Positions 27,577-42,852 of a stretch of 57,192 nucleotides of DNA are shown here, one piece after another. The stretch spans positions 1-57,192 of the forward strand of contig NZ_QEII01000232.1 in the NCBI RefSeq assembly GCF_003347515.1, given 5' to 3'. The notes below the pieces were generated by a model. It was not told the origin of the DNA and made no database searches. It worked only from the letters and a program-made list of their open reading frames with translations. The translations under genes were made by a program, and so were the position numbers. Each line of letters starts with the position of its first letter. Position 1 is the stretch's first letter. This DNA comes from Rhodoferax ferrireducens (lineage in GTDB: Bacteria > Pseudomonadota > Gammaproteobacteria > Burkholderiales > Burkholderiaceae_C).

Positions 27577-28059
27577 CTAGGGCCGGGTACGGTTCTCCGC
27601 AAAGCGCTGCTCCATCTCACGTCGCATCTGCTTGCGGACTTCGGCAGCGGCGTGACGCCGATGCTCATCGACGGTGTCCGGCTGCAAAGGCAGCACCGGC
27701 ACGGGTTTTCTGTCCTCGTCCACCGCCACCATCGTGAAGAAGCAGCTGTTGACGTGACGCACCACGCGGGAGCGTATGTCCTCGGCAATCACCTTGATGC
27801 CGATCTCCATCGACGACGTGCCGGTGTGGTTCACCGACGCGAGAAAGGTCACCAGCTCGCCCACATGAATGGGCTGCCGGAACATGACCTGGTCAACGGT
27901 CAACGTCACCACGTAGCGCCCCGCATAGCGGCTCGCGCAGGCATAGGCGACTTGGTCGAGCAGCTTGAGGATGGTGCCGCCGTGCACATTGCCTGAAAAA
28001 TTAGCCGTGTCGGGGGTCATCAAGACCGTCATCGAAAGTTGGTGCGCTGGCAGATTCAT
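27577..28059 (-). CDS. Hot-dog acyl-CoA thioesterase (YciA type)
   Basis: Cytosolic thioesterase of 160 residues that hydrolyses acyl-CoA. The hot-dog signature is NFSGNVHGGTILKLLDQVAY, with the catalytic aspartate in the central helix, followed by VTLTVDQVMFRQPIHVGELV. A C-terminal extension after residue 125 is charged (RRHAAAEVRKQMRREMEQRF). I chose the ATG at 28057-28059; a TTG one codon earlier is possible. It lies 66 bp before the end of the acid-sugar operon on the same strand, but its role does not fit that pathway and it probably has its own promoter. Confidence 0.88.
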   Translation of the reverse strand: MNLPAHQLSMTVLMTPDTANFSGNVHGGTILKLLDQVAYACASRYAGRYVVTLTVDQVMFRQPIHVGELVTFLASVNHTGTSSMEIGIKVIAEDIRSRVVRHVNSCFFTMVAVDEDRKPVPVLPLQPDTVDEHRRHAAAEVRKQMRREMEQRFAENRTRP

Positions 28060-28125
28060 CAAAAAGACCTCATGAAAAGAGAAGAACCGCTTGCAGTCTC
28101 GGTTCTCGGTCAGGACAAAATTTCT

Positions 28126-29562
28126 TCAGGCCAGGGTGTATGCCGTTTTGACCATCGTGTAAAACTCGGCCGCGTACCGACCCTGCTCGCGCGGGCCGTA
28201 ACTCGAACCCTTGCGGCCGCCAAATGGCACATGGTAGTCAACACCGGCGGTGGGCAAGTTCACCATCACCATGCCGGCCTGCGCATGGCGTTTGAAATGC
28301 GTGGCGTATTTTAGCGAGGTGGTGGCAATGCCGGCGGACAAGCCAAAGGGTGTGTCGTTTGCCACCGCCAGGGCTTGCTCGTAGTCCTTCACGCGAATCA
28401 CACTGGCCACCGGACCAAATATCTCTTCCCGGTTGATGCGCATCGCGGGCGTGCTGTCCACGAACAGCGCAGGCGCCATGAAATAGCCGTCCGTGGCGCG
28501 GCTGAGCCGCTCGCCGCCGATGAGCAGGCTGGCGCCTTCGGCCTGGCCTATCTCCACGTAGGAGAGGTCTTGCTCCAGCTGCGCCTGCGACACCACCGGG
28601 CCGATGTCGATGCCGGCCTGGCAAGCGTCGCCGACCTGAATGGCGGCCATGCGGCGCTGCATGGCGGCGATGAACTCGGGGTAGATACGATCCGTCACGA
28701 TCAGGCGGCTCGACGCGGTGCAGCGTTGGCCGGTGGCGTAGAAACAGCTTTGCACGCTCAGCTCCACCGCCTGCGCCAGGTCCGCGTCGTCCAGGATGAC
28801 TTGCGGATTCTTGCCGCCCATCTCAAGCTGCACCTTCTTGAGGTTTTGTGCGCAGGTCTGGGCAATGCGGCGGCCCACGCCGACCGAGCCGGTGAAGCTG
28901 ATGGCATCGACACCGGGATGGTTGACCAGCGCCTCGCCAGTCACCCGGCCCGGCCCCATCACCAGATTGAACACGCCGGCCGGAATGCCGGAGCGGCTGA
29001 TGATCTCGGCCAGGGCCCAGGCGCTGCCGGGCACCAGATCGGCCGGTTTCAGCACCACGCAGTTGCCAAAGGCCAGCGCCGGTGCAATCTTCCAGGCCGG
29101 AATCGCGATCGGGAAGTTCCAGGGCGTGATCAAGCCGACCACGCCGACCGGTTCACGGGTAATTTCCACCCCGATATTCGGGCGCACCGAGGGCAGGGTT
29201 TCACCCGCCAGCCGCAGGCACTCGCCGGCGAAGAACTTGAAAATCTGGCCGGCGCGGGTGACTTCGCCCATGCCTTCGGGTTGGGTCTTGCCTTCCTCGC
29301 GCGCCAGCAAGGTGCCGAGTTCTTCCTTGCGGGCCAGGATCTCGCTGCCGATTTTGTCCAGGGCATCGGACCGGGCCTGGATGCTGCCGTTACGCCAGGC
29401 GGGGAACGCCGCCTGCGCGGCCTGCACGGCGAGGTCGAGCTGAGCGGCATCGGCCTGGGTGTAGTGGCCAACGATGTCGGCCAGGTTGCTCGGGTTGTGG
29501 TTGGGGCTTTGGCTGTTGCCGGCGATCCATTCGCCGTTGATGAGGTTGTTGAAAGTGTTCAT
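28126..29562 (-). CDS. 2-oxoglutarate (2,5-dioxovalerate) semialdehyde dehydrogenase
   Basis: NAD(P)-dependent aldehyde dehydrogenase of 478 residues, predicted to oxidise 2-oxoglutarate semialdehyde to 2-oxoglutarate, the last step of non-phosphorylating pentonate breakdown. Catalytic Cys281 (GQRCTASS) and Glu247 (LEMGGKNPQ) are in place, as are TPWNFP and FTGSVGVG for cofactor binding. The fingerprint GVEITREPVGVVGLITPWNF is typical of the AraE/KGSADH group. Substrate is inferred from the AraD-like enzyme upstream in the same operon. Its ATG overlaps the stop of the COG3618 gene by four bases (ATGA), showing translational coupling. It is the last gene of the operon. Confidence 0.82.
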   Translation of the reverse strand: MNTFNNLINGEWIAGNSQSPNHNPSNLADIVGHYTQADAAQLDLAVQAAQAAFPAWRNGSIQARSDALDKIGSEILARKEELGTLLAREEGKTQPEGMGEVTRAGQIFKFFAGECLRLAGETLPSVRPNIGVEITREPVGVVGLITPWNFPIAIPAWKIAPALAFGNCVVLKPADLVPGSAWALAEIISRSGIPAGVFNLVMGPGRVTGEALVNHPGVDAISFTGSVGVGRRIAQTCAQNLKKVQLEMGGKNPQVILDDADLAQAVELSVQSCFYATGQRCTASSRLIVTDRIYPEFIAAMQRRMAAIQVGDACQAGIDIGPVVSQAQLEQDLSYVEIGQAEGASLLIGGERLSRATDGYFMAPALFVDSTPAMRINREEIFGPVASVIRVKDYEQALAVANDTPFGLSAGIATTSLKYATHFKRHAQAGMVMVNLPTAGVDYHVPFGGRKGSSYGPREQGRYAAEFYTMVKTAYTLA

Positions 29563-30497
29563 GAATTCAAAGGTTTGATTGAAGTGTCGGGAATGTCAAT
29601 GCGGTAGAAGCGCAGGGCGTTGTCGCACATCACCGCGCGCTGTTGCGCCGGGCTCAAGCCATCGAGCATGCGCAGCAGGCTGTCGACCAGTTCCGGGTAG
29701 CCGATGCGCAAGCCCGCGACGGGGAAGTTGCTGGCGAATAGGCAGCGCTGCCAGCCGAAGATGGCCAACGTGTCGCGCACGATGCGGGCGTTGGCCTGCC
29801 CGTCCCAAGGCTGGTCGCGTAGGCCGAATTCGGACAGTTTCACGTGCACATTGGGCTGGCGTGCCAGCACCGCCATGGCGTCGCGCCAGCGCTTCAGGCC
29901 GTCCTCGCTGCGGTCCCAGGCAAAACCGTGGTGGTTGAGAACAATCGGCAACTTGGGAAACTGCGCCGCCACCTCCGCCGCTTCGGCCAGATGCCAATAG
30001 GGCACACGCAGATCCCAGCTCAAGCCCAGTTTGGGCAAGAGGGACAGGCCGCGCAGCCAGGTCTCATCCTGCATCGTGCCGCGCTGGCCGCGCACCGACT
30101 CGGTCGGCGACGCCGCCGTCACCGGCTTGCTGCGAATGCCCCGTACCAGCGGGTAGCGCAGGTGCTCCAGCAAGCGCTCGCCGGTTTCGGGGCGGTCCAG
30201 CCAGGCATGCGCCACCACCGCGTTGGGGATGCCGTGCCGCGCCTGCATCTGGTGCAGCCAGGCGGTCTCGGCCACTTGCTCGCTGCGGTCGCGCTCGGCC
30301 TCCACATGCACCGTGGCCACGACGCGGCAGCCGTGGCTGGCCGCGCGGTAATCCGAGGGCAGGAAGTTGCGGCACAAGGGCTGGTAGTCGCCCAGGAAGA
30401 ACGCCTGCGGGTCGTAGTCCTCCTGCAGCCAGGGGTAGTGACCTTTCGACAAATCCCACAAGTGGTGGTGGGCATCGACGATCGGCATCGCATCCAT
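29559..30497 (-). CDS. COG3618 amidohydrolase, sugar-lactonase-like
   Basis: TIM-barrel metal hydrolase of 312 residues in the family of L-fucono- and L-rhamnono-lactonases and LigI. The N-terminal motif VDAHHHLWDLSKGHYPWL is the family fingerprint, with the two metal-type histidines. Later conserved blocks are VVATVHVEAE, LVRGIRSK, PIVLNHHGF and CLFASNFPVAG, where the final position (N rather than D) should be compared with homologues. In this operon it would open an acid-sugar lactone before dehydration. The start at 30495-30497 overlaps the beta-propeller stop. A short in-frame alternative begins at MPIVDAHHH. Confidence 0.8.
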   Translation of the reverse strand: MDAMPIVDAHHHLWDLSKGHYPWLQEDYDPQAFFLGDYQPLCRNFLPSDYRAASHGCRVVATVHVEAERDRSEQVAETAWLHQMQARHGIPNAVVAHAWLDRPETGERLLEHLRYPLVRGIRSKPVTAASPTESVRGQRGTMQDETWLRGLSLLPKLGLSWDLRVPYWHLAEAAEVAAQFPKLPIVLNHHGFAWDRSEDGLKRWRDAMAVLARQPNVHVKLSEFGLRDQPWDGQANARIVRDTLAIFGWQRCLFASNFPVAGLRIGYPELVDSLLRMLDGLSPAQQRAVMCDNALRFYRIDIPDTSIKPLNS

Positions 30498-31444
30498 CAA
30501 TGCTGCCAGACGTAGGACGAGTCGGGTTCGCGCAAGGTCTTGATGGTCTGCTCGAACTCGAAGCTATCGAGGTTGAGGCGGCGCACGGTCTCGTCCTGGA
30601 ACGAGATGTAGACCGCGCGGTCCACCGGGTGAAAGGACAGCGCCAGCGGATTGCTCGGCAGCGCGAAGTAACGCTGCTCCTCCAGGTCGGTACCAAAAAT
30701 GGAGATCGACTGCTCGCCGGAATTGGTGGTCAACAGCAAGTCCTGCCCCTGCGCGCCGCGAAAGCGGTAGACCCGGTTCGGGTCTCGCCGGGTCTTGCCG
30801 CGCGCCACCACCCGCATGGTCGCGGTGTCCACCGCCACGATGGTGTCGTCGCCACGATTGGCCACGTACAGCAGCGACTCGTCGGCGGACAAGACATTGC
30901 CCTCGGGCACCGGCCCCGGCATCATCGCCACCGGCGTGAAGGTCGGGTCGTTAGGCTTGATCTTGGTGACGGTGTTGGACAGCAGGTTGAGCGCATACGC
31001 AGTCTGCGCGTCCCGGGTCAACGCGAACAAATGGGTCTTGTAGCCACCCGAGGCCACGGCCAGGTCCGGCACATGGCGGTTCACCGGGTCCGAGAAACGC
31101 AGCAAGGTGTTGTGCGCCTCGGACATGACGAACAGGCGGCCCTCGGCGTCCACCGTCAGCCCATGCGGGCGGTAAAACGGCCAGAGGTTGAGCGTGGCCA
31201 CATGCTCGCGACGGTCCAGGTCGATCACGAACACCGAGTGGCCGCCGACATCGCCCAGGTGGCTGGCGGTCTCGATGCCGTAATGTCCCACATAGGCCCG
31301 ACGCCGCACCGGATCGACCGTGAACTCATGCGGAAAATTGGGCAGCACGATGTGCTTTTCCGTCTGGCCGCTGGCCAGATCGTAAAAGCTGAAGGTGTGG
31401 GCGCATTTTTGCACCAGGAGTAATGTTTCTTTGGGTGTGCTCAT
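30497..31444 (-). CDS. YVTN-type beta-propeller protein
   Basis: A 315-residue repeat protein with six or seven beta-propeller blades; blade signatures include SVFVIDLDRREHVATL, YALNLLSNTVTKI, LLYVANRGDDTIVAVD and SISIFGTDLEEQRYF. No signal peptide is visible, so it would be cytosolic, unlike many YVTN proteins. It sits directly next to the COG3618 hydrolase with overlapping codons, which suggests a joint job on a sugar lactone. Cytosolic beta-propellers such as SMP-30 and 6-phosphogluconolactonase are lactonases, but the catalytic residues of those families are not recognisable to me here. Function is therefore open. Confidence 0.7.
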   Translation of the reverse strand: MSTPKETLLLVQKCAHTFSFYDLASGQTEKHIVLPNFPHEFTVDPVRRRAYVGHYGIETASHLGDVGGHSVFVIDLDRREHVATLNLWPFYRPHGLTVDAEGRLFVMSEAHNTLLRFSDPVNRHVPDLAVASGGYKTHLFALTRDAQTAYALNLLSNTVTKIKPNDPTFTPVAMMPGPVPEGNVLSADESLLYVANRGDDTIVAVDTATMRVVARGKTRRDPNRVYRFRGAQGQDLLLTTNSGEQSISIFGTDLEEQRYFALPSNPLALSFHPVDRAVYISFQDETVRRLNLDSFEFEQTIKTLREPDSSYVWQH

Positions 31445-31447
31445 TTT

Positions 31448-32467
31448 TTATCGGGTAACAGTGGCTGTGGTGGGGTTGACTGGTTTGGTCGGGCCTGAGA
31501 GGCGGTTGGAGAAATAGCGTGAGCTTTGGGTGATGGCCAGCACGCGGAAGGGCCGTGATTCGATATTTTCAAACACCTCCATGCGCTTGCTGCGCAGATC
31601 GGCAATCATGCTTGCTTCGGTCTTGGCGTTCATGCTGCGCTGGAAGTCCCGGCCAGCGACTGCTGCGTCCAGCAGGGCTTTCTGGTGGGCGGGCGATAGC
31701 GCGTTAAATCGTTTGGCGTTGATGGCCACCATCAGGGCGGTGTAGGCGTGCCGGGTGATGGTCACGTATTTCTGTACCTCGTACAGTTTTTCGCTGTAGG
31801 TAATCGACAGCGGGTGGTCCTGTGCATCCAGTTTGTCAGCCTTGATGGCCTCATACAACTCGCCTAGCGGCATGCTGATGGTGTGTGCGCCCAGTGCCCT
31901 GAAATATTCGGCCTGTGTGGCGTTGCCCACACGCAGGCGCAGGCCCTTGAAGTCTGCCGGGGTTTTGACGAAACCCTTATTGCTGGTGATGATGCGAAAA
32001 CCTACCTCCCAGAACGACAGGCCCCGGATGCCGGCCGCCAAAGTCTCATTGAGCAGCGGTCTGCCGAAATAGGGGGAGTCGAGCTCATGCCAGGCCTCCT
32101 TCGGTGTTTGGAAAGAGTAGGGCAAGTCAATTTCGGCCAGCCGGGGCGCCAGTGACACAAAGTTACCGCTGCCGGCCATGGTCATGTCCAGCGTGCCGGC
32201 CTTGACGTCGGCAATCGACTTGGCGTCATTGCCCAGCTCGCTGTTGGGAAAAACGTCGATGCGCAATGTGCCCTGGCTCAGTTCGCTTGCGGTTTCGGCC
32301 ATTCTCAGAGCCGCCAGGTGCTGGCTGGAGGTGGTCGAGCCGACATGTGACAGGCGCAGCACCACGGTTGAGGCGACGGCTGCCGGTTTGCTGGTCGTCT
32401 GGGCATGGCTGACAACAAGGCTTGTGACCAGGGTTATGCCCATGATGAGTTCGTAAAGATGTTTCAT
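31448..32467 (-). CDS. TRAP transporter periplasmic binding protein DctP (second copy)
   Basis: Solute receptor of 339 residues for a TRAP transporter. The N-terminus MKHLYELIMGITLVTSLVVS is a signal peptide ending near SHAQ. Family features are LRLSHVGSTTSSQHLAALRM, DVFPNSELGND, KGLRLRVGNATQAEYF with the conserved arginine, and MPLGELYEAIKADKLDAQDHP. The 'ADKLDAQDHP' site replaces the more usual 'G.vDAqE'. It differs markedly from the DctP at 34367-35350 in the same operon, so the two probably bind different ligands. The tail past SRYFSN is longer and less conserved. The ATG at 32465-32467 follows GAGG. Confidence 0.87.
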   Translation of the reverse strand: MKHLYELIMGITLVTSLVVSHAQTTSKPAAVASTVVLRLSHVGSTTSSQHLAALRMAETASELSQGTLRIDVFPNSELGNDAKSIADVKAGTLDMTMAGSGNFVSLAPRLAEIDLPYSFQTPKEAWHELDSPYFGRPLLNETLAAGIRGLSFWEVGFRIITSNKGFVKTPADFKGLRLRVGNATQAEYFRALGAHTISMPLGELYEAIKADKLDAQDHPLSITYSEKLYEVQKYVTITRHAYTALMVAINAKRFNALSPAHQKALLDAAVAGRDFQRSMNAKTEASMIADLRSKRMEVFENIESRPFRVLAITQSSRYFSNRLSGPTKPVNPTTATVTR

Positions 32468-32549
32468 CTGTGACCTCGTTGCTTGTTTTGCTGTGCTTGC
32501 CTTCTGGCCGACCTGATGCGGTGTACAAGGCCGGGCGAAGCCGCCGGAT

Positions 32550-33827
32550 TTACCGGAACCAGCCCGCGGGCACCATGACCAGCTGCGGGAATAGCACAAA
32601 CAGGAACAACAGGATGGTTTGCGCTAGCAAAAACGGCCAGACCCCCCTTATCACACTGTCCAGGCTGGTCTTGGCCACGCCGGCGGCGACATTGAGCACG
32701 GTGCCTACCGGCGGTGTCAGCAAGCCGATGGCGTTGTTCATAATGAACATCACGCCAAAGTAAACCGGGTCGATGCCCGCCTGCTTGACGATGGGCATCA
32801 TGATGGGCGTGAGGATCAGCACCGTGGGCATCAGGTCCAAAGCAGTGCCGACGACGATGACCACGAGCATCATCACGAACATCAGCAAGATCTTGTTGTC
32901 CATGAACGGTTGCAACAGGTCGGCCACTTGCGCCGGAATGCTGGCAATCGTGATGAGGTAGGCCGACACCATGGCGGTCGCCACCAAAAACATGATGGTG
33001 CTGGAGGTCTTGGCGGCGGCCAGCATCAGCGCGGGCAAATCCGGCAGACGCAGGCCGCGGTAGATGAACAGGCCGACCACCAGCGAATACATCACCGAAA
33101 CCACGGCTGCTTCGGTCGGCGTGAACACGCCGAACTTCATGCCGCCGATGATCACGATCGGCAGAATCAGCGCCCAGACGCCGTCCAGCAGCGCCTTCAG
33201 CAAGCGCTCAAGCTCGAACTTTTGCGTGATGACGGGGGCTTCTTTTTTGGCGATCATCCACCAGGTCAGTCCCAGCGCCATGCCCATCATCAGCCCGGGG
33301 AATATGCCCGCCAAAAACAGCTTGGTGACCGAGACTTGCGCCGCGACGCCAAACACCACGAAGGCAATCGAAGGCGGAATAATGGGCGCGATGATGCCGC
33401 CGGCGGCGATCAGCCCGGCCGAGCGGGCCACGTTGTAGCCGGCCTTGCGCATCATCGGCATCATCATGGCCGCGACCGCCGCCGTGTCGGCCACCGCAGA
33501 GCCGGAAATGCTGGCGATGATCAATGCGGTAATGATGGCCGCATAGCCCAGGCCACCGCGAACATGGCCGACCATGGCTTCAGCCACCCGCACGATGCGG
33601 CCCGACAGACCGCCCGCATTCATCAGCTCGCCCGCCAGCATGAAAAACGGCACCGCCATCAGCGGGTAGTTGTTGACGCCTTCGAGTAGGTTCTGCGCAA
33701 GAATCTGCGTGTCGAAGCTGTCCATGTGCACCATCAGGGCCACGCCGCAGGATAACAAGGCAAAGGCAATCGGCATGCCCAGTGCCATGAACCCCAGCAG
33801 GGAGAGCATAAAAATAGTAATCGTCAT
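32550..33827 (-). CDS. TRAP transporter large permease DctM
   Basis: Large integral membrane subunit of the TRAP transporter, 425 residues with about 12 hydrophobic helices, which carries the Na+-coupled transport path. Family features are FALLSCGVALMVHMDSFD near the N-terminus, the conserved AGELMNAGGLSGRIVR, GSAVADTAAVAAMMMP, and GLLTPPVGTVLNVAAGVAK. The ATG at 33825-33827 gives MTITIFMLSLLGFMALGMP, and 13 bp separate it from dctQ. With the dctQ and dctP genes it forms a complete uptake system for an organic or sugar acid. Confidence 0.93.
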   Translation of the reverse strand: MTITIFMLSLLGFMALGMPIAFALLSCGVALMVHMDSFDTQILAQNLLEGVNNYPLMAVPFFMLAGELMNAGGLSGRIVRVAEAMVGHVRGGLGYAAIITALIIASISGSAVADTAAVAAMMMPMMRKAGYNVARSAGLIAAGGIIAPIIPPSIAFVVFGVAAQVSVTKLFLAGIFPGLMMGMALGLTWWMIAKKEAPVITQKFELERLLKALLDGVWALILPIVIIGGMKFGVFTPTEAAVVSVMYSLVVGLFIYRGLRLPDLPALMLAAAKTSSTIMFLVATAMVSAYLITIASIPAQVADLLQPFMDNKILLMFVMMLVVIVVGTALDLMPTVLILTPIMMPIVKQAGIDPVYFGVMFIMNNAIGLLTPPVGTVLNVAAGVAKTSLDSVIRGVWPFLLAQTILLFLFVLFPQLVMVPAGWFR

Positions 33828-33840
33828 GATGGCTCTTTGT

Positions 33841-34344
33841 TTAATCGACTTCGCTGCCGGCGTTCGGCACCAACTCTTCGCGCGGCATGCGCCCCGTGAG
33901 CTGGCGCCACAGCGAGTAGGCCAACACACCGGCCATGCCCACGCTGCTGATCAACAGGCACGAGTAGACCAGCCCCAGCGGAAGTCCCGCCACCGGCGAG
34001 CGGTCGTCCATGCCCAGCACCACCTGCTTCCACGTGCCATGCGCCAGCAAGCCGCAGCACAGCATGGCGATCAGGTCGGCCAGGAAGCGGCACAGGCGCT
34101 GCCCCTTTTCGCCCAGCCGGGCGACTACGCTCGACATCCCCAGGTGGGCGTTGTCCTTCATCACCAGCAGCGCCCCGATCAGGGTCAGCCACATGAAGAC
34201 GAAGCGGGACACTTCCTCGGAAAAGGTAATGCCGGAGTTGAAGAGATAGCGCAGGACCACGTTGCCGAAGACCAGCACGATCATCACGCCCAGGAGCGCG
34301 ATGAGCAGCCAGTCGACAGCACGTGAAACAGGATTGGATTTCAT
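33841..34344 (-). CDS. TRAP transporter small permease DctQ
   Basis: Small membrane subunit of the TRAP transporter, 167 residues with four transmembrane segments; the family pattern NVVLRYLFNSGITFSEEVSRF is clear. It stabilises and couples DctM. The order dctP-dctQ-dctM on the minus strand is canonical. The start at 34342-34344 gives MKSNPVSRAVDWLL. It lies 22 bp after the first dctP. Confidence 0.92.
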   Translation of the reverse strand: MKSNPVSRAVDWLLIALLGVMIVLVFGNVVLRYLFNSGITFSEEVSRFVFMWLTLIGALLVMKDNAHLGMSSVVARLGEKGQRLCRFLADLIAMLCCGLLAHGTWKQVVLGMDDRSPVAGLPLGLVYSCLLISSVGMAGVLAYSLWRQLTGRMPREELVPNAGSEVD

Positions 34345-34366
34345 GTGCTTGGACCGCGCGAACTTC

Positions 34367-35350
34367 TTACTTGATGGCGTCCACAGCCGTCAGCAGCTCA
34401 GGCCCGTTCTTGGCGATGAAGGATTTGCGCAAGTCATCATTCACCAGGGTCTTGAAAGGCGCCGGGTCAAAGGTTTCGATGACCTGCATGCCGTTCTTCT
34501 TGAGTTCGGCAATGATGTGCGCTTCATTTTTCTGGTTCAGGTTGCGCTGCAGCAGCTTGCCGTCGGATGCCGCGGACAGGAGCACCTTTTGCAGCTCGGG
34601 CGAGAGCGCGTCGAACTTCTGCTTGTTGAACACCACCGGCATCGCCGTGAAGGCATGGCGCGTCATGGTGAGGTGTTTTTGCACCTCGTAGAACTTGGAG
34701 GCGTAGGTGATGTCAATCGGGTGCTCCTGCGCATCCACCGCGCCGGCTTCAAGCGCCTGGTACAACTCGCCCAAGGGCATCGGAACCGGATTCGTGCCCA
34801 GCAGTTTCCAGGCTTGAACGTGGGTCGGATTCGGCGTGGTGCGGATCTTCAGGCCCTTCACATCCGCCGGTGTGCGCACGGCGCGGTTCTTGGTGGTGAT
34901 GGAGCGAAAGCCGACTTCCCAGAAGGCCAGTTGTTTCAGGCCGCCGGTCTCCAGCCCTTTCATCAGCGACTGGCCGATATCGCCGTCCACGGTTTTGTAG
35001 GCATGGGGCTGGTCGCGGAACAGGAAGGGGATGTCCAGCACGTCCAGGCGCGGCACCAGGCCGGCAAAGTTGCCGCTGCCGGCCATCATCATTTCGATGG
35101 TGCCGCCGCGCACCGCGCCAATCACGGTGGAATCATTGCCGAGCTGACTGCCGGGAAAAACCTGCACTTCGAGTTTGCCGCCGCTGCGCTCCTTGACCAG
35201 CTTGGCGAATTCGAGCGCGGCCTGGTGCTGCGATGTCGCTTCCGGCCCGGCATGGGCGAAGCGGATTTTGGTGACCTGCGCGTTAGCGCTCAAGCCGGCA
35301 ACGAGCAAGGCGGTGGACAGTGCGAGTTTGAGGAAGTTGCGGTGTTTCAT
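34367..35350 (-). CDS. TRAP transporter periplasmic binding protein DctP (first copy)
   Basis: Solute receptor of 327 residues. It has a signal peptide (FLKLALSTALLVAGLSANAQ) and the family blocks IRFAHAGPEATSQHQAALEF, QVFPGSQLGNDSTVIGAV, KGLKIRTTPNPTHVQAWKLL with the conserved arginine that holds the ligand carboxylate, and LEAGAVDAQEHPI. It has an AGGAGAC ribosome-binding site. It sits directly upstream of dctQ and dctM, so it is the main receptor of the system. The carboxylate ligand is inferred from the downstream acid-sugar enzymes. Confidence 0.92.
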   Translation of the reverse strand: MKHRNFLKLALSTALLVAGLSANAQVTKIRFAHAGPEATSQHQAALEFAKLVKERSGGKLEVQVFPGSQLGNDSTVIGAVRGGTIEMMMAGSGNFAGLVPRLDVLDIPFLFRDQPHAYKTVDGDIGQSLMKGLETGGLKQLAFWEVGFRSITTKNRAVRTPADVKGLKIRTTPNPTHVQAWKLLGTNPVPMPLGELYQALEAGAVDAQEHPIDITYASKFYEVQKHLTMTRHAFTAMPVVFNKQKFDALSPELQKVLLSAASDGKLLQRNLNQKNEAHIIAELKKNGMQVIETFDPAPFKTLVNDDLRKSFIAKNGPELLTAVDAIK

Positions 35351-35397
35351 GGTTTTGTCTCCTAGGAATAAAAATTATTTAAGTTGCAATGAACGAA

Positions 35398-36321
35398 CTA
35401 CTTGTTCCAACGCAGCACCAGCGGGTCGAGTCGCCGGGCTGTCTCGATCAAGCCTTTTCGCACCTCGGGGTGCAGGGTTGGAAAGGGGTGACGCGGCGCT
35501 TCGCAGGCGATGACGCCACCCTCTTTCATCAGGGCTTTGGCCGTCAGGATGCCACCCTGGCGGTTCTCGTAATTGATGAGCGGCAGCCATTGGGTGTAGG
35601 CCGCAATCGCGTCCTCACGGCGTCCGGCCAGGTAGGCGTCGACGATGGTGCGAATGCCATCGGGGTAGGCGCCACCGGTCATGGCGCCGGTGGCGCCGGC
35701 GTCCAGGTCGGGCAACAGGGTGATGGCTTCCTCGCCATCCCACGGGCCTTCGATCGCGTCGCCGCCCAAACGGATGAGCTCGCGCAGCTTGCTGGCGGCG
35801 CCGGCCGTTTCGATCTTGAAGTAGGCGACGTGCTCGATTTCTTTCGCCATGCGCGCCAGGAAGGCCGCCGACAGCACCGTGCCACTGGCGGGCGCGTCCT
35901 GCACCATGATGGGAATGTTCAAGCCATCCGACATCCGGGCATAGAACTCATAAATCAGCGGCTCGGGCACGCGGAAGGTGGCGCCGTGGTAGGGCGGCAT
36001 CACCATCACCATGGCGGCGCCCATGTCCTGCGCCCGGCGACTGCGCTCGGCGCAGACTTGCGTGCCAAAGTGCGTGGTGGTGACGATCACCGGCACGCGA
36101 CCCTTGACATGTTCCAGGATGGCTCGGGTCAGCACCTCGCGTTCATCATCGGCCAGCAAAAACTGCTCGGAAAAGTTCGCCAGGATGCACAGACCGGTGG
36201 AGCCGGCATCGATCATGAAATCGACGCAGCGCAACTGGCTCGGCAAGTCCAGCGCACCCGCCTCCGTGAAGGTGGTGGGAACGACCGGGAAGACGCCGCG
36301 GTAGGGACGTAATGCAGCCAT
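35398..36321 (-). CDS. 2-keto-3-deoxy-L-pentonate (L-arabonate) dehydratase, AraD-like (DHDPS family)
   Basis: Class I aldolase-fold enzyme of 307 residues, predicted to dehydrate and decarboxyl-free convert 2-keto-3-deoxy-L-arabonate to 2-oxoglutarate semialdehyde (EC 4.2.1.43). The sequence follows the Azospirillum AraD pattern closely in RGVFPVVPTTF, CVDFMIDAGSTGLCILANFS, PIMVQDAPASG and GDAIEGPWDGEEAITLLPD. The Schiff-base lysine is Lys169 in VAYFKIETAG. I chose the ATG at 36319-36321 because homologues start at this point; the frame continues upstream into the neighbouring gene. Five bases separate it from the dehydratase gene, and the product matches the dehydrogenase at the operon end. 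Confidence 0.86.
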   Translation of the reverse strand: MAALRPYRGVFPVVPTTFTEAGALDLPSQLRCVDFMIDAGSTGLCILANFSEQFLLADDEREVLTRAILEHVKGRVPVIVTTTHFGTQVCAERSRRAQDMGAAMVMVMPPYHGATFRVPEPLIYEFYARMSDGLNIPIMVQDAPASGTVLSAAFLARMAKEIEHVAYFKIETAGAASKLRELIRLGGDAIEGPWDGEEAITLLPDLDAGATGAMTGGAYPDGIRTIVDAYLAGRREDAIAAYTQWLPLINYENRQGGILTAKALMKEGGVIACEAPRHPFPTLHPEVRKGLIETARRLDPLVLRWNK

Positions 36322-36326
36322 GGTCT

Positions 36327-37499
36327 TCACTCGATGATGTTGAACTGGTCGAGGAACTCGGTCTTGAGCGTCAGGCCCAGACCCGGCTTGTTGTCCTCGA
36401 GCTGCACAAAGCCGTTCTCGGCCACGGGCTCGCCATCGAAGATGTAATAGAACAGCTCGTTGCCGACTTCCACGTCGTGCATCGGGAAGTACTCGCTCAT
36501 GGGCGAGGCCAGCGTGCTCATGGTCAGGTGGTAGTTGTGCATCTGGCCGGCGTGCGGAATCACCGGCACGCTGTAGGCCTCGCACAGCGCATTGATCTTG
36601 TGCGCGGCCGTGATGCCGCCGACGCGGTTGGTGTCGTACTGCACCACGCTCACGGCTTTTTTGTCCAGCAACTGTTTAAAGCCATAGAGGCTGAATTCAT
36701 GCTCGCCGCCCGAGATCGGGATGCTGGTGAGCTGGTTCAGTTCGGCGTAGCCGTCGATGTCGTCGGCAATCACCGGCTCTTCGAGCCAGCGCGGCTCGAA
36801 CTTCTCCAGCTTGGGCAGCATGCGCTTGGCGTACTCCAGGTTCCAGCCCATGTAGCACTCCAGCATCAGGTCGTTGTCGTAACCAATGACTTCGCGAATG
36901 GCTTCGACCGCTTTCAGGTTTTCAGCCACGCCTTTTTGCAGGTGCGCCGGGCCGTAGCCGAAGCGGGTCTTGAACGCGGTGAAGCCCTGGTCGAGAAACT
37001 TCTGGGCCTCGAGCTGCATTTCCTTGATGTCGGTGCGGTAGAGCTTGGAGTAGTAGCAGGGAATTTTTTCCTTGGTGCGCCCGCCCAGCAGCTTGAACAC
37101 CGGCTTGTTGACCGACTTGCCCAGGATGTCCCAGATCGCCAGGTCAATCGCCGAGATCGCGGCCATGGTCACACCCTTGCGGCCCCAGGCGTGCGTGGCG
37201 CGGTACATGCGCTGCCACAGGTATTCGTAGTCCCACGGGTCCTGGCCCAGCACCAGCGGCGTGAGGTACTGGTCGATGATGGCTTTGGCGATGGCCGGTG
37301 CCAGCGCCACATTGCCCAGGCCGATGATGCCGTCATCGGTTTCGATCTCCACCACCGTCCAGGAGTGGAAGCGGAAGGTGCTCATGGATTCGGTTTTGGA
37401 GTACACCAAGTCCATGGCGTTGGAGCAGAAGTTGCCTTGGGGTGGAACGGTCTTGCCTTTCCACTCGAACACGCGGGCGCGTACGGATTTGATTTTCAT
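36327..37499 (-). CDS. Enolase-superfamily acid-sugar dehydratase (RhmD/L-lyxonate dehydratase type)
   Basis: Mandelate-racemase-family enzyme of 390 residues that removes water from an acid sugar to give a 2-keto-3-deoxy acid. The three Mg2+ ligands are visible as Glu214 (LECYMGW), Glu240 (RWLEEPV) and Glu266 (GGEHEF); His316 (IPHAGQ) with Asp289 (QYDTNRVGG) can serve as the general base. The GGEHEF and IPHAG features and [15 protein letters not shown] match the rhamnonate-dehydratase-like subgroup. Since the next enzyme takes a keto-deoxy-L-pentonate, L-lyxonate or L-arabonate is a better substrate guess than rhamnonate. The exact sugar cannot be read from the sequence. Confidence 0.83.
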
Positions 37500-37514
37500 A
37501 TTGAAGTTCAGGAG

Positions 37515-38543
37515 TTAGGAGTTGGAGGTTTGCAAACGCGCCGCACCCATGCGGCACGCAATTCGGAAGGCGTTGAGAGTGGCGTTCACATCGGCCACAC
37601 CCTGGCCGGCAATGTCAAACGCCGTGCCATGCGCGGGCGTGGTGATGGGCACCGGCAAGCCACCCTGCACCGTGACACCCTTGCTGAAACCAAGCAGCTT
37701 GATGGCGATCTGGCCCTGGTCGTGGTACATGGTGACGATGGCCTGGTACTGGCCGTCAACAGCCTTCAGGAAAATCGTGTCAGCAGGAAACGGACCATCA
37801 ACCGGGATGCCACTGGCGCGCAGCTCGCGCACCGCCGGCTCGATGATGTCGATTTCTTCTCGTCCGCAGACGCCGCCGTCGCCGCCGTGCGGATTGAAGG
37901 CCGCCACCGCGACTTTGGGCTGCGCCGTGCCGCTGGCCTGCAGGGACAGGTAGATCAGCCGGGTCGCCTCCACGATGCGTTGCTGGCTCAGAACGGCGGC
38001 CGCGTCCTTGAGCGGAATGTGCGAGGACACGCGCGAGGTCCACAAGTCGCCCAGCGTGTTGAACTCGCAAAAGTAACCGGTGACGCCCAGGTACTCGGCA
38101 AAGTGGTGCAACTCGTCTTCGTGCTGGAGGCCACCCAGCTTCATCGCCTGCTTGTTCAGCGGCGCAAAGCAGATGGCATCGACCTCGCCGCGCTTGGCAC
38201 CATCCATGCACAGATTGAGCACCTGCAACACCGACGCGCCACACGCGGCCAGCGCCTGGCTGCGCTGCACCTGTTCCGGGCGAATCGTGTCCACCGCCAG
38301 AAAAGCCGGCAGCGTCTGGTCAGGGCGCGCACGCACCTCGGCCAGGCTGGCCACGGCTTGCGTGGCCACCGTGAGCCCGGCCGTTTTTTGGCCCTCTTGC
38401 CAGAGCCAGGGGTCGCCCACCAGCACGATGTTGGCGCCGGTCGTGATGTGGGGCTGGCTCAAGAGTTTGGCGATCAGCTCCGGGCCGATGCCTGCGGCAT
38501 CGCCCAGGGTCAGCGCCACGACGGGCATGTTTTGGGTACTCAT
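37515..38543 (-). CDS. PdxA-family dehydrogenase (PdxA2-like)
   Basis: NAD-dependent oxidative decarboxylase of the 4-hydroxythreonine-4-phosphate dehydrogenase family, 342 residues. Conserved blocks are LTLGDAAGIGPELIAKLL (GDPAGIGPE in PdxA), CFAPLNKQAMKLGG, HEDELHHFAEYLGVTG and VTMYHDQGQIAIKLLGF, with the metal-binding His and Asp residues. PdxA2 proteins act on sugar-acid phosphates such as D-threonate or D-erythronate 4-phosphate, normally with a partner kinase of the DUF1537 family. No such kinase is in this window. Here it lies between a Bug protein and an acid-sugar dehydratase, so its substrate is uncertain. Confidence 0.82.
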   Translation of the reverse strand: MSTQNMPVVALTLGDAAGIGPELIAKLLSQPHITTGANIVLVGDPWLWQEGQKTAGLTVATQAVASLAEVRARPDQTLPAFLAVDTIRPEQVQRSQALAACGASVLQVLNLCMDGAKRGEVDAICFAPLNKQAMKLGGLQHEDELHHFAEYLGVTGYFCEFNTLGDLWTSRVSSHIPLKDAAAVLSQQRIVEATRLIYLSLQASGTAQPKVAVAAFNPHGGDGGVCGREEIDIIEPAVRELRASGIPVDGPFPADTIFLKAVDGQYQAIVTMYHDQGQIAIKLLGFSKGVTVQGGLPVPITTPAHGTAFDIAGQGVADVNATLNAFRIACRMGAARLQTSNS

Positions 38544-38550
38544 GGTTTGT

Positions 38551-39513
38551 TCATTCCAGTTTGATGTTTTTCTTGGCGATCAGGTCGCCGTAGCGCTTGT
38601 TTTCATCGGTGTGAAACTGCGCGAATTGGGCCTGCGTCATGGGCGTCAGATCGGCCCCGATGGCGCCCAGACGGGCTTGGGTTTCGGGCATGGCCAGCAC
38701 TTTGCTGACCTCGGCGTGCACGCGTTCCTGCACGGCCTTCGGCGTGGACACGGGCATGTAAATGCCATACCAGGCACTCATCTCCACACCCTTCAGGCCG
38801 GCCTCGGCCATGGTGGGCACATTGGGCAGCTGCGGATTGCGCTTCGCGCTGGCCACCGCCAGTGGCTTCATGCGCCCGTTCTTGATGTGACCAATCACCG
38901 AGGGCATGGTGTCAAAACTCAGTTGCACCTCGCCACTGATCAAATCCACCAGCGCGGGTCCACTGCCGCGGTAAGGGATGTGCGTGATGAAAACACCGGC
39001 CTGGTCCTTGAACAACTCGGCGGCAATGTGCTGGGTGCTGCCAGCGCCGCTGGTGGCGTAGTTCAATTTGCCGGGACGGCTCTTGGCCAGCTTGATCAGG
39101 GACTGCACGGAATCCACCGGCAGCGCGTTGTTGACCACCAGCACATTGGGCACGGCGCCGACAAACACCACGGGCACCAGGTCCTTGTTATTGTCATAGC
39201 CGAGTTTGAGCAGGTGCGGTGCAATCGCATGGGCGGTGGACACGCCCATCACCATGGTATGACCGTCGGTGGACTTGGCGGTCAGGTCGGCGGCCAGTGT
39301 GTTGGATGCGCCAGGGCGGTTTTCCGCCAGCACGGGCTGCTTCAGCAACGGGCCGAGCCGATCGGCCACGGCGCGGGCCATGGCGTCGGTGCCACCGCCG
39401 GGGGACGAGCCGACCAAAATCCGCACGGGTTTGGTGGGCCATTCCTGCGCACTTGCCATGCCGGAAGCCAAGGCGGACCAGCCCAGGACAATTGCGATTG
39501 CCAGAGTTTTCAT
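38551..39513 (-). CDS. Bug/TctC-type periplasmic solute-binding protein
   Basis: Tripartite tricarboxylate receptor (Bug family), 320 residues with a signal peptide MKTLAIAIVLGWSALASGM ending at SAQ. The family motifs are EWPTKPVRILVGSSPGGGTD, ENRPGASNTLAADLTAKS and KLNYATSGAGSTQHIAAELF. No TctA or TctB permease genes are in the window, so this receptor is an orphan, as is common in Burkholderiales. The ATG at 39511-39513 has GGAGACAA before it; an in-frame start at 39585 is unnecessary. It is the first gene of the operon and faces the LysR gene. Confidence 0.88.
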   Translation of the reverse strand: MKTLAIAIVLGWSALASGMASAQEWPTKPVRILVGSSPGGGTDAMARAVADRLGPLLKQPVLAENRPGASNTLAADLTAKSTDGHTMVMGVSTAHAIAPHLLKLGYDNNKDLVPVVFVGAVPNVLVVNNALPVDSVQSLIKLAKSRPGKLNYATSGAGSTQHIAAELFKDQAGVFITHIPYRGSGPALVDLISGEVQLSFDTMPSVIGHIKNGRMKPLAVASAKRNPQLPNVPTMAEAGLKGVEMSAWYGIYMPVSTPKAVQERVHAEVSKVLAMPETQARLGAIGADLTPMTQAQFAQFHTDENKRYGDLIAKKNIKLE

Positions 39514-39608
39514 CGTTGTCTCCGTTGTACCCACGCCGAGAGAGGGTGGGCTTATGGGCTGGATACTAGGTGTCAAATAGATCAACGTAAATTGAATGTT
39601 TACTAAGT

Positions 39609-39631
39609 ATTGATATCATTTGGTTATCAAT
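39609..39631. promoter_or_regulatory. LysR operator candidate of the acid-sugar operon
   Basis: ATTGATA (39609-39615) and TATCAAT (39625-39631) are perfect inverted repeats separated by 9 bp, in the gap between the divergent Bug and lysR genes and overlapping the lysR start codon. This shape suits a LysR-type site and autorepression. Confidence 0.55.
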
Positions 39632-40562
39632 GAACCCGAACGATCCCATCCCTCAACTGCTGAATCGCCTGCGCATGCGGCAGGTTTCGCTGCTCCTGGC
39701 CATCGAACAACACGGCACCTTGCGCGGCGCCTCGGAGGCGCTGGGCCTGACCCAGCCCGGTGCCACCAAAATGCTGCACGAACTGGAAGACACCATAGGA
39801 CACCCGTTGTTTGACCGAGTCGGTCGCGGTCTGCAGATCACCACATCCGGGCAATGCGTGCTCAGCTACTTCCGGGGCATGCGCGGCACCATGGAGGCCC
39901 TCAGCCGGGAACTGCAGGAACTCAAACTGGGCAGCGCCGGCAAGTTGTTCATCGGCAGCATCATGGCGGCCTCCCCTTCCCACCTGACCCATGCGCTGAT
40001 TGAAATCAAGAAGCTGTTTCCGCTGCTGTCCATCGAGATCGTTGTGGGCACCAGCGACCACCTGGTGAAGTTGCTGCAGGAAGGCGCGCTTGACCTGGTG
40101 ATCGGGCGCACGATTGGCCTGCCGGCCCGGGACTACGACTTTCGGCCGATCGCCGACGAAGCGCTGGCGGTGATCGTGTCGCAGACGCATCCGTTGACGG
40201 GCACCAGGTCGGTACCGTTCCAGGCCATGCTGCGATTCCCCTGGATATTGCAGCCCTCGGGCAGCCCGATGCGGGACGTGATGGAGAAGGAGTTCGGCAT
40301 GCACAACGCCCCCATCCCCAAAGGCCTGATCGAGACAGCCTCGATCCTGACAACGACCAACCTGATTGCGCAGTCCGAGATGATTGCGGTGATTCCGGAC
40401 TCCGTGGCCTCGCGCTACCAGCGCCACAAACTGCTCACCATCCTGCCGTACACCATCCAGAATTCCCTCGCCGCCTACGGCAGCATCGTGCGCCGGGACC
40501 GGCCCCAGAGTCTGGCGACGGCCCGGTTTCTGGCCCTGTTGCATGGCAGTGACGCCGGCTGA
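39630..40562 (+). CDS. LysR family regulator of the acid-sugar operon (GbpR-like)
   Basis: LysR-type regulator of 310 residues. The N-terminal region MRQVSLLLAIEQHGTLRGAS then EALGLTQPGATKMLHELEDT is typical of the GbpR/GalR-like group that senses sugars or sugar acids. The C-terminal effector domain has FIGSIMAASPSHLTHALIEI and IEIVVGTSDHLVKLL. It is divergent from the 11-gene operon, with 116 bp between the start codons and an inverted repeat at the lysR start. It is likely an activator of that operon in response to the acid sugar or its keto-deoxy product. Confidence 0.9.
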   Translation: MNPNDPIPQLLNRLRMRQVSLLLAIEQHGTLRGASEALGLTQPGATKMLHELEDTIGHPLFDRVGRGLQITTSGQCVLSYFRGMRGTMEALSRELQELKLGSAGKLFIGSIMAASPSHLTHALIEIKKLFPLLSIEIVVGTSDHLVKLLQEGALDLVIGRTIGLPARDYDFRPIADEALAVIVSQTHPLTGTRSVPFQAMLRFPWILQPSGSPMRDVMEKEFGMHNAPIPKGLIETASILTTTNLIAQSEMIAVIPDSVASRYQRHKLLTILPYTIQNSLAAYGSIVRRDRPQSLATARFLALLHGSDAG

Positions 40563-41912: not shown

Positions 41913-42840
41913 TGGCCAGTGCAAACAGCCAGGCCGCCGATGCACAAACGAGCTTGCCACGCACCGCACCGGTCGGAGGCAGCCGGAATGCCGGCACGCT
42001 GTCCGTCACGATGATTTTCGAAATGCTGTCATCCGCCAGTGCATCCGCCGCCGAACCGATGAAGAGGCCATGCGCGGCACAGGCCACCACCTCGGTCGCC
42101 CCCGCCAGGCGTAGCGCGACCGCAGCACGCCGCAGGGTGTCGCCGCTGGCGATGAGGTCGTCAATCAACAACACCGTCATGCCAGACACATCGCCGGCCA
42201 CCAGCTTGTCACTGCTGACCACGCCCGCACTGCGGCGCTTGTCGACCATGGCAAAGCCGACCGGGCGCTGAAGTGTCTTCTCCAGCGATTCACGCCAGAG
42301 TTGGGCACGTTTCACGCCCCCGGGGTCAGGCGAGGCCACCGCCAGCGCGTCCTGGCCAACCAGGTCGGCGACCAGCCGGTCGAAGGCGTGGTGCGCTTCA
42401 AGGTGCATGGTCGGGCAACGAAAGGCGTTCTGGAACGCCGCCACGTTGTGGGCCTCCAACACGATCAGCTGCGAGGTGCCGACGGCCTCGAACAACTGGG
42501 CCACACAACGCAGCGTGACCGGATCGAATGGTTTGGTCTGCCGGTCTTTGCGGGCGTAGGCGAGATAGGGCACCACCGCCGTGGTGCGCGCCGCGCCGTG
42601 CTCGCGCAAGGTGGCAATGAACATCCAGAGCTGCATCAGCTTGTCATGCGGGCTGTTCTGCGGATCGCCGTACAGGCTGTGAATGACGTAAGCATCACTG
42701 CCGCGCGGGTCCATCAGTGGCCTGAGCTTGTGCTCACCATCCTCAAAGCCGCGATTCTCATGCGGCGCCAGCGACACCCCCAGATTGGCGGCCAGTCCGC
42801 GCGCAAACGTGGCATCGGCGTCCAGCGAAAAAAGCATCAT
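41881..42840 (-). CDS. Ribose-phosphate pyrophosphokinase-like protein (divergent)
   Basis: PRPP-synthetase-family protein of 319 residues, beyond the housekeeping copy expected elsewhere. The C-terminal PRPP loop VLLIDDLIASGDTL and the DKRR motif (VDKRRSAG) are retained. The usual ATP-region sequence DLHADQIQGFF is replaced by EAHNVAAFQNAF, so the active site is altered. Other blocks are FEDGEHKLRPL and PYLAYARKDRQTKPFDP. Two adjacent ATGs (MM) follow AAGGG. It is 12 bp after the DHH gene on the same strand and likely co-transcribed. It may make a different pyrophosphorylated sugar or only regulate. Confidence 0.82.
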   Translation of the reverse strand: MMLFSLDADATFARGLAANLGVSLAPHENRGFEDGEHKLRPLMDPRGSDAYVIHSLYGDPQNSPHDKLMQLWMFIATLREHGAARTTAVVPYLAYARKDRQTKPFDPVTLRCVAQLFEAVGTSQLIVLEAHNVAAFQNAFRCPTMHLEAHHAFDRLVADLVGQDALAVASPDPGGVKRAQLWRESLEKTLQRPVGFAMVDKRRSAGVVSSDKLVAGDVSGMTVLLIDDLIASGDTLRRAAVALRLAGATEVVACAAHGLFIGSAADALADDSISKIIVTDSVPAFRLPPTGAVRGKLVCASAAWLFALAIKASHATWLR

Positions 42841-42852
42841 CCCTTGACCCTT

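What the first reader, a model, noticed from the sequence alone, without database searches (positions are those of the whole stretch)
28126..39513. Eleven-gene acid-sugar operon with an unusual combination of parts
An enolase-superfamily dehydratase, an AraD-type keto-deoxy-pentonate dehydratase and a 2-oxoglutarate semialdehyde dehydrogenase form a complete route to 2-oxoglutarate, combined with a TRAP transporter, a Bug protein, a lactonase-like COG3618 protein, a cytosolic beta-propeller and a PdxA-like enzyme. The closest known scheme I recall is L-lyxonate or L-arabonate breakdown, but I do not know this exact set from any described pathway, and using an enolase-type dehydratase in place of the IlvD-type AraC is notable.
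Basis: partly seen in the sequence, partly recalled or inferred. Interest (0 to 1): 0.7.

Follow-up and report, generated by a model that had tools for sequence, protein, structure and literature searches.

The report
Operon for eating vitamin C remnants

Summary
In detail: eleven minus-strand genes (28126-39513) beside a divergent LysR gene. The set is probably not a new acid-sugar pathway. Family for family it matches the lower part of the bacterial L-ascorbate pathway of Stack et al. 2020 (paper not held; content recalled, only title and citations seen): beta-propeller (benzilic-acid rearrangement of 2,3-diketo-L-gulonate), COG3618 lactonase, PdxA-like decarboxylase, L-lyxonate dehydratase, keto-deoxy-acid dehydratase, semialdehyde dehydrogenase. 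Support: near the propeller, COG3618 lies in 56, PdxA in 53 and LyxD in 54 of 60 loci; all 11 propeller carriers among 120 family genomes carry LyxD; LyxD keeps K177/R179, D289, H316; PdxA keeps its metal histidines but not its phosphate-site residues. The importer is closest to E. coli YiaMNO (diketogulonate). What differs: the cytochrome b561 and gluconolactonase of the ascorbate route are not in the operon. In relatives these sit beside a second propeller clade (gluconolactonase adjacent in 12 of 15), whereas the window's clade sits with COG3618 (60 of 61). So this looks like a variant that starts from diketogulonate. No activity, transcript or ligand was tested.

The parts
38551..39513 (-). 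Bug/TctC-type periplasmic binding protein without TctAB partners in the operon
   Evidence: PF03401 E=3.7e-66; ligand unknown
37515..38543 (-). PdxA-like protein, predicted NAD-dependent decarboxylase of 2-carboxy-L-lyxonate
   Evidence: PF04166; metal His175/219/274 kept, E144-L145, T291, I300 at substrate/phosphate positions, each in at least 97% of 72 relatives
36327..37499 (-). LyxD-like L-lyxonate dehydratase (predicted)
   Evidence: 3stp/3sqs/3ssz E 3.7e-185 to 2.1e-188, next group 1.9e-57; K177, R179, D289, H316 in at least 97% of 72 relatives
35398..36321 (-). AraD-type (DHDPS family) 2-keto-3-deoxy-L-lyxonate dehydratase (predicted)
   Evidence: PDB 7c0c and 3fkk, L-2-keto-3-deoxyarabonate dehydratase, E 1.2e-156 and 5.8e-155
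34367..35350 (-). TRAP binding protein DctP 1, YiaO-like
   Evidence: 45% to E. coli YiaO over 324 columns; 306.6 bits to YiaO against 219.8 for the best solved structure
33841..34344 (-). TRAP small permease DctQ
   Evidence: PF04290; YiaM model 93.8 of 260 bits; 37% to YiaM
32550..33827 (-). TRAP large permease DctM, YiaN-like
   Evidence: YiaN model 521.6 of 800 bits; 55% to YiaN
31448..32467 (-). second TRAP binding protein DctP 2
   Evidence: PF03480; 42% to DctP 1, 36% to YiaO
30497..31444 (-). seven-bladed beta-propeller, predicted benzilic-acid rearrangement enzyme for 2,3-diketo-L-gulonate
   Evidence: model pLDDT 94.3 with 28 strands; best fold match 1l0q TM 0.83; conserved polar set
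29559..30497 (-). COG3618 amidohydrolase-superfamily protein, predicted 2-carboxy-L-lyxonolactonase
   Evidence: PF04909 E=6.8e-40; beside the propeller in 60 of 61 rows of the window's clade
28126..29562 (-). aldehyde dehydrogenase, predicted 2-oxoglutarate semialdehyde dehydrogenase
   Evidence: best NCBIfam model is alpha-ketoglutaric semialdehyde dehydrogenase, 517.7 bits, below its cut-off of 770
39630..40562 (+). divergent LysR-type regulator, presumed regulator of the operon
   Evidence: PF03466 and PF00126; a divergent LysR relative in 43 of 60 loci
39514..39629 (.). 116-base divergent spacer, presumed promoter region
   Evidence: sequence; one promoter-like match on the plus strand, not above shuffles

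Best explanation
The eleven genes likely form one operon predicted to import 2,3-diketo-L-gulonate, the ring-opened product of oxidised vitamin C, through a YiaMNO-like TRAP transporter and to convert it to 2-oxoglutarate by what appears to be the lower part of the L-ascorbate pathway of Stack et al. 2020. Predicted order (every activity inferred from homology): the propeller rearranges 2,3-diketo-L-gulonate to 2-carboxy-L-lyxonolactone; the COG3618 protein opens the lactone; the PdxA-like protein removes CO2 to give L-lyxonate; the enolase-type dehydratase LyxD gives 2-keto-3-deoxy-L-lyxonate; the AraD-type dehydratase gives 2-oxoglutarate semialdehyde; the aldehyde dehydrogenase gives 2-oxoglutarate. 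Shown here: gene order, family membership, conserved residues, conserved linkage, and which genes travel with which propeller clade. Inferred: substrates, importer ligand, reaction order, LysR control. The cytochrome b561 and gluconolactonase genes that in relatives sit beside a second propeller clade are not in this operon, so the variant likely starts from diketogulonate formed outside the cell.
For: Linkage to the propeller: COG3618 56, PdxA 53, LyxD 54, AraD-type 43 of 60 loci. All 11 propeller carriers (E at most 1e-30) in 120 family genomes have LyxD (E at most 1e-100), on the same contig; LyxD occurs in 15 of 120 (hypergeometric p about 1e-12, ignoring kinship). LyxD group and residues. 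PdxA metal site kept, phosphate-site residues replaced. Propeller fold and conserved polar residues. In relatives the same family is linked to b561-annotated and gluconolactonase genes, for example both modules side by side on a Paraburkholderia plasmid. TRAP nearest to YiaMNO, whose substrate is reported as 2,3-diketogulonate (passage in PMC4324149). Diketogulonate and 2-carboxy-lactones occur in the plant apoplast (passages in PMC5398285; PMC11066805).
Against: The key paper could not be read, so the enzyme assignments rest on recall of its abstract, and I could not check to which propeller clade its assayed enzyme belongs. Clusters with the second propeller clade in Variovorax and Sphingomonas have no COG3618 gene in the stretch, so the lactone step is not universal. 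Two Cupriavidus propellers nearest to the window's clade have a gluconolactonase nearby but no COG3618, PdxA or LyxD in the stretch. Four distant propellers without these neighbours keep many of the conserved residues. COG3618, PdxA, ALDH and the TRAP permeases stay below NCBIfam equivalog cut-offs. The genome does hold 7 PF01292 cytochromes and 5 gluconolactonase-family genes elsewhere, so use of ascorbate itself is not excluded. An earlier report for YiaMNO named L-xylulose as substrate.
Confidence: 0.68

Rival explanations
1. Same lower pathway, but the bacterium uses ascorbate or dehydroascorbate itself: oxidation and ring opening are done by genes elsewhere in the genome, and the TRAP system carries another member of the series.
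For: The genome has 7 PF01292 cytochromes and 5 gluconolactonase-family genes, one of them 47% identical to the gluconolactonase of the Variovorax cluster.
Against: No match in the genome to the b561 protein of the Variovorax cluster or to PF03188 (neither search had a positive control, though the same protein finds 56-64% relatives in five loci of the second clade). Gluconolactonases of the second clade's clusters are mostly 69-75% alike, the genome's nearest is 47%. In 0 of 61 rows is a gluconolactonase directly beside the window's propeller clade.
Confidence: 0.2
2. Same enzyme chemistry but a related substrate, for example the 2-carboxy-xylono epimers or another 2,3-diketo acid, with the window's propeller clade specialised away from the ascorbate one.
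For: Six loci carry both propeller clades, so the two may not be redundant; a few positions split them, such as N157/H, D199/S and T17/C.
Against: Of 34 polar positions kept in at least 95% of 87 rows of the catabolic clades, 21 are identical in all 87, which suggests the same chemistry; the importer resembles the diketogulonate one.
Confidence: 0.08
3. One reading: a plain L-lyxonate or L-arabonate pathway, with propeller, COG3618 and PdxA handling lactone forms of the same sugar acid.
For: LyxD, AraD-type dehydratase and ALDH suffice from L-lyxonate; one family genome has LyxD without the other enzymes nearby (L136).
Against: PdxA, COG3618 and propeller are linked to LyxD in most loci; PdxA is present without a propeller in L134 and L135, which fits a stepwise chain above L-lyxonate; b561-annotated and gluconolactonase genes join the same clusters.
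Confidence: 0.04

Closest known systems
L-ascorbate catabolic pathway of Ralstonia eutropha H16 (Stack et al. 2020, JACS 142:1657; abstract recalled, paper not held)
   Same: Propeller, amidohydrolase-superfamily lactonase, PdxA-family decarboxylase, L-lyxonate dehydratase and the route to 2-oxoglutarate
   Different: No cytochrome b561 or gluconolactonase in the operon; YiaMNO-like TRAP importer with two DctP proteins plus a Bug protein
L-lyxonate pathway of Pseudomonas aeruginosa PAO1 (Ghasempur et al. 2014; recalled, title seen in a reference list)
   Same: LyxD, keto-deoxy-acid dehydratase and semialdehyde dehydrogenase
   Different: Here three further enzymes stand above L-lyxonate in the same operon
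b561/gluconolactonase clusters with the second propeller clade (Variovorax SRS16 L095, Sphingomonas L094, Paraburkholderia graminis L098)
   Same: PdxA and LyxD, and a propeller of the same family
   Different: Second propeller clade; ABC, gluconate-symporter or MFS genes in place of TRAP; L094 and L095 have no COG3618 gene in the stretch, L098 has one with its window-clade propeller
E. coli yia operon (YiaMNO, YiaK)
   Same: TRAP importer family for 2,3-diketo-L-gulonate
   Different: E. coli has a diketogulonate reductase and a kinase route downstream; the window has none of these genes in the operon
L-arabonate pathway with an AraD-type dehydratase
   Same: AraD-type dehydratase and semialdehyde dehydrogenase
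   Different: Enolase-type LyxD instead of an IlvD-type dehydratase

Membership tests
L-ascorbate pathway of Stack 2020 (features recalled) | cytochrome b561 family protein that oxidises ascorbate | tested here: not met
   None among the scanned genes of the operon and its flanks; none found in the genome with PF03188 or the Variovorax b561 protein, but without a positive control
L-ascorbate pathway of Stack 2020 (features recalled) | gluconolactonase that opens dehydroascorbate | tested here: inconclusive
   Not in the operon; five SGL-family genes elsewhere, nearest 47% to the Variovorax one
L-ascorbate pathway of Stack 2020 (features recalled) | WD40-like propeller protein | tested here: met
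   Predicted propeller, 28 strands, nearest 1l0q; orthology to the assayed protein could not be checked
L-ascorbate pathway of Stack 2020 (features recalled) | amidohydrolase-superfamily lactonase | tested here: met
   PF04909, COG3618-like; activity not tested
L-ascorbate pathway of Stack 2020 (features recalled) | PdxA-family decarboxylase of an unphosphorylated acid | tested here: met
   Family by PF04166; residues at the phosphate site replaced; activity not tested
L-ascorbate pathway of Stack 2020 (features recalled) | enzymatic conversion of 2,3-diketo-L-gulonate to L-lyxonate | not testable with these tools
   needs enzyme assays
L-lyxonate dehydratase LyxD | KxR motif and His-Asp dyad (recalled R179 and H316) | tested here: met
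   K177, R179, D289, H316 in at least 97% of 72 relatives
L-lyxonate dehydratase LyxD | dehydration of L-lyxonate | not testable with these tools
   needs an assay
PdxA/kinase (threonate or 4-hydroxythreonine phosphate) pathways | phosphate-site residues of PdxA and a partner kinase | tested here: not met
   E. coli His-Thr, Asn and Arg are Glu-Leu, Thr and Ile here (roles recalled); no kinase family among the 20 scanned proteins
L-arabonate pathway with IlvD-type dehydratase | IlvD-type dehydratase gene in the cluster | tested here: not met
   none among the scanned genes
YiaMNO 2,3-diketo-L-gulonate transporter | NCBIfam equivalog cut-offs of YiaN and YiaM | tested here: not met
   521.6 of 800 and 93.8 of 260 bits; 55% and 37% identity
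YiaMNO 2,3-diketo-L-gulonate transporter | binding of 2,3-diketo-L-gulonate | not testable with these tools
   needs a binding assay; DctP 1 is 45% identical to YiaO
2-oxoglutarate semialdehyde dehydrogenase | NCBIfam equivalog cut-off | tested here: not met
   best model, 517.7 of 770 bits

The most novel reading that the evidence does not exclude
There are two entry modules into L-lyxonate degradation, built on two propeller clades. One (b561, gluconolactonase, second-clade propeller) oxidises vitamin C. The other, found here (TRAP or MFS importer, window-clade propeller, COG3618 lactonase), scavenges what vitamin C falls apart into outside the cell: 2,3-diketogulonate and its spontaneously formed 2-carboxy-lyxono- and xylonolactones, the extra binding proteins covering the different compounds. 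Nested loci (LyxD alone; PdxA with LyxD; plus propeller and lactonase; plus b561 and gluconolactonase) mirror how far up the decay chain each bacterium reaches.
Probability: 0.45. Interest if true: 0.55.

Novelty: new variant of a known kind. Interest (0 to 1): 0.4.

Why it matters
It replaces a puzzle by a testable substrate. The public records seen here call the key enzymes 'YncE family protein' or hypothetical, 'L-rhamnonate dehydratase' and '4-hydroxythreonine-4-phosphate dehydrogenase', so the route is hidden in annotation. If the split into entry modules is right, it tells which bacteria use vitamin C and which use only its decay products, such as those formed in plant cell walls, and it offers two propeller clades for comparing a rare benzilic-acid rearrangement.

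Tried and rejected
Rejected: a PdxA plus kinase (phosphorylated acid) pathway, because no kinase family appears among the 20 scanned proteins and phosphate-site residues are replaced. Rejected: chance assembly of genes. Led nowhere or gave little: PF01292 was not the b561 family of the relatives' clusters; solved structures do not settle the ligands of the two DctP proteins; a protein search with DctP 1 scored only the 8000 best candidates and showed 120 of 4377 matches, all unnamed or generically named; promoter and terminator scans found no more than shuffles; the phylum-wide scan found the propeller in 7 of 398 genomes. Paper searches: 'lyxonate dehydratase' none; PdxA with ascorbate and beta-propeller none; the others gave citing or chemical papers only. 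Stack 2020 and Ghasempur 2014 are not held, so what I say of them is recalled. Distances in the propeller model could not be measured because no coordinates are given out.

Rows dropped before counts: 97 propeller rows became 91 after removing repeats of a genome fetched twice; rows with internal stops or 250 residues or fewer were left out before that (so the interrupted Cupriavidus gene is not in the tree). In some searches and 76 loci cut by contig ends or by the fetched range count as misses; L009 counts as lacking PdxA and LyxD although a stretch that appears to be from the same contig holds both (L118). The 76 LyxD loci contain such repeats. Neighbour calls rest on tblastn with identity, coverage and distance limits that I chose.
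Full report
What is there. The window (contig G000:C232) holds eleven minus-strand genes between 28126 and 39513 and a divergent LysR gene at 39630-40562. Gaps are short and two junctions overlap. The nearest propeller relative among the fetched loci is that of Polaromonas jejuensis (94%), so the host is inferred to be a Polaromonas-like member of the Comamonadaceae. A thioesterase-family gene (27577-28062, same strand, 63 bases downstream) may or may not belong to the operon.

The last leg. The enolase-superfamily protein matches PDB 3stp, 3sqs and 3ssz over its full length (E 3.7e-185 to 2.1e-188), while the next group starts at 1.9e-57. I recall 3stp as the Labrenzia LyxD of Ghasempur 2014; the listing itself says putative galactonate dehydratase. 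K177, R179, D289 and H316 are kept in at least 97% of 72 relatives. The DHDPS-type protein matches L-2-keto-3-deoxyarabonate dehydratase (7c0c, 3fkk). The aldehyde dehydrogenase is nearest to alpha-ketoglutaric semialdehyde dehydrogenase models but under their cut-offs. Together these would take L-lyxonate to 2-oxoglutarate.

The puzzling parts. Propeller, COG3618 protein and PdxA-like protein correspond to the three unusual steps of the L-ascorbate pathway of Stack 2020 as I recall its abstract: a WD40-like protein that rearranges 2,3-diketo-L-gulonate to 2-carboxy-L-lyxonolactone, an amidohydrolase-superfamily lactonase, and a PdxA-family decarboxylase. The paper is not held. Held papers cite it: PMC11066805 (passages) says that microbial ascorbate catabolism has been associated with unusual chemistry and separately describes the non-enzymic change of diketogulonate into 2-carboxy-L-lyxonolactone and on to L-lyxonate; PMC10444878 (passages) tested ascorbate because an ascorbate pathway needing an enolase-family (COG4948) enzyme was nearly complete; PMC12932077 (passages) has it among its references numbered for the benzilic acid rearrangement.

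Conservation. The one genome-collection scan with the propeller gave 60 loci. On the propeller's strand and above the limits set, COG3618 is present in 56, PdxA in 53, LyxD in 54, the AraD-type gene in 43, TRAP DctM in 16, Bug in 12 and the ALDH in 9 of 60; several misses are short contigs. In 120 genomes drawn from the family, the propeller family (E at most 1e-30) occurs in 11 and LyxD (E at most 1e-100) in 15; all 11 carriers have LyxD on the same contig. The four LyxD genomes without a propeller match show PdxA, LyxD and the AraD-type gene (L134, L135), LyxD without the other enzymes nearby (L136), or a cluster that runs into a contig end within a gluconolactonase gene (L133).

Residues. 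Aligned to E. coli PdxA (1ps6), the protein keeps His175, His219 and His274, which I recall as the metal ligands, but has Glu144-Leu145, Thr291 and Ile300 where E. coli has His-Thr, Asn and Arg (their role in binding the phosphorylated substrate is recalled); each is kept in at least 97% of 72 relatives. That speaks against a phosphorylated substrate. The propeller model (pLDDT 94.3) has 28 strands, which fits seven blades of four; its best fold match is 1l0q (TM 0.83). H39, H94, H138 and E181 lie at the start of strands 38-44, 93-98, 137-142 and 180-185, that is every fourth strand, and are identical in all 87 rows of the catabolic clades; so are E40, E109, K136, R197 and D308. The four more distant rows, which lack these neighbours, keep H39, H94, H138 and E181 too, so these residues do not prove this particular reaction.

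Two propeller clades. A tree of 91 rows separates the window's clade (61 rows, support 99/93), a second clade (15 rows, 97/95), a Cupriavidus clade (7 rows), a Rhodobacterales pair, and a Cupriavidus pair (L122, L123) nearest to the window's clade; the order among the larger clades is not well resolved. In the window's clade COG3618 is within 1.6 kb in 60 of 61, a gluconolactonase is directly beside the propeller in 0 of 61 (within 9 kb in 7) and the b561 protein within 10.5 kb in 2. In the second clade a gluconolactonase is directly beside it in 12 of 15, the b561 protein within 10.5 kb in 8 of 15, and COG3618 within 1.6 kb in 1 of 15 (within 10.5 kb in 6, five of these being loci with both clades). 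The Cupriavidus clade has MFS and COG3618 in 7 of 7, with PdxA and LyxD elsewhere in the one genome checked (L090). The Cupriavidus pair has a gluconolactonase within 9 kb and no COG3618, PdxA or LyxD in the stretch. Paraburkholderia graminis plasmid pPHS1_P carries both modules back to back: b561-annotated gene, second-clade propeller, gluconolactonase and ABC transporter on one side; PdxA, LyxD, MFS, window-clade propeller and amidohydrolase on the other (its b561-annotated protein has no Pfam match, while those of L094 and L095 match PF03188). This ties the family to ascorbate-type enzymes independently of the recalled paper. It also shows a tension: second-clade clusters of Variovorax and Sphingomonas have no COG3618 gene in the stretch, so the lactone is opened by another enzyme there, or COG3618 serves only the other module. 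In Sphingomonas an 'AraD1 family protein' stands where the DHDPS-type gene would be.

Entry point. The operon has no b561 and no gluconolactonase gene. The genome shows no match to the Variovorax b561 protein or to PF03188 (no positive control in these searches, but the same protein finds 56-64% relatives in five other loci). Its nearest gluconolactonase is 47% identical to the Variovorax one, and it has one propeller of this family (two further hits are weak and partial). The TRAP proteins are close to E. coli YiaMNO: binding protein 45%, large permease 55%; 306.6 bits for YiaO against 219.8 for the best solved structure. PMC4324149 (passage) cites Thomas 2006 for diketogulonate as the YiaMNO substrate and an earlier study for L-xylulose. 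Diketogulonate and the 2-carboxy-lactones are reported from the plant apoplast (PMC5398285, passages). Hence the preferred reading: a diketogulonate-scavenging variant. Importers differ between relatives: TRAP DctM within reach in 17 and MFS within 3 kb in 36 of the 61 rows of the window's clade, an amino-acid-type ABC binding protein in P. jejuensis (L001; its permease and ATPase frames were judged by reading only), none recognised in the stretch of Polaromonas JS666 (L006).

Verdict. The variant and the module split are not described in what my eight answered paper searches showed, but the unread Stack paper may cover part of it.

Noticed in passing
L081 9477-11401 (same place as L058 8366-10290): In Cupriavidus necator A5-1 a propeller gene next to a gluconolactonase gene is interrupted; the two parts lie about 1.5 kb apart with a 442-residue open frame between them on the other strand, which may be an insertion element.
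   Followed up: partly
L001 3214-4797 and 5881-8914: In Polaromonas jejuensis a galactarate/altronate dehydratase family gene sits between LyxD and the AraD-type gene, and an amino-acid-type ABC transporter stands where the TRAP genes are in the window.
   Followed up: partly
L002, L009, L010, L120, L121: Relatives carry a second COG3618 paralogue (about 40% to the window's) and one or two further DctP genes, so up to three DctP proteins with one DctQM pair.
   Followed up: no
window 29559-30497, residue N258: The COG3618 protein and at least 97% of its 58 relatives have Asn where 4dlf has Asp in the SDWP-like motif; 6uvz also has Asn. This position is usually the catalytic Asp of the superfamily (recalled), so the lactonase chemistry may differ.
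   Followed up: partly
L094 16216-17199: In the Sphingomonas plasmid cluster an annotated AraD1 family protein follows LyxD, possibly a different protein for the keto-deoxy-acid step.
   Followed up: no
L097, L131, L132, L139: Distant propellers (one in Streptomyces, one beside carotenoid genes in Sphingomonas) keep H39, E40, H94, E109, H138 and E181 without the catabolic neighbours, so the family may have other roles.
   Followed up: partly
window 40875-43833: Beyond the LysR gene lie a phosphoribosyl-pyrophosphate-synthetase-like gene (41881-42840, minus) and two open frames without a Pfam match (40875-41912 plus, 42853-43833 minus).
   Followed up: no
window 48471 region, minus strand: A second Bug-type gene, 31% identical to the operon's Bug protein, lies about 9 kb away.
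   Followed up: no
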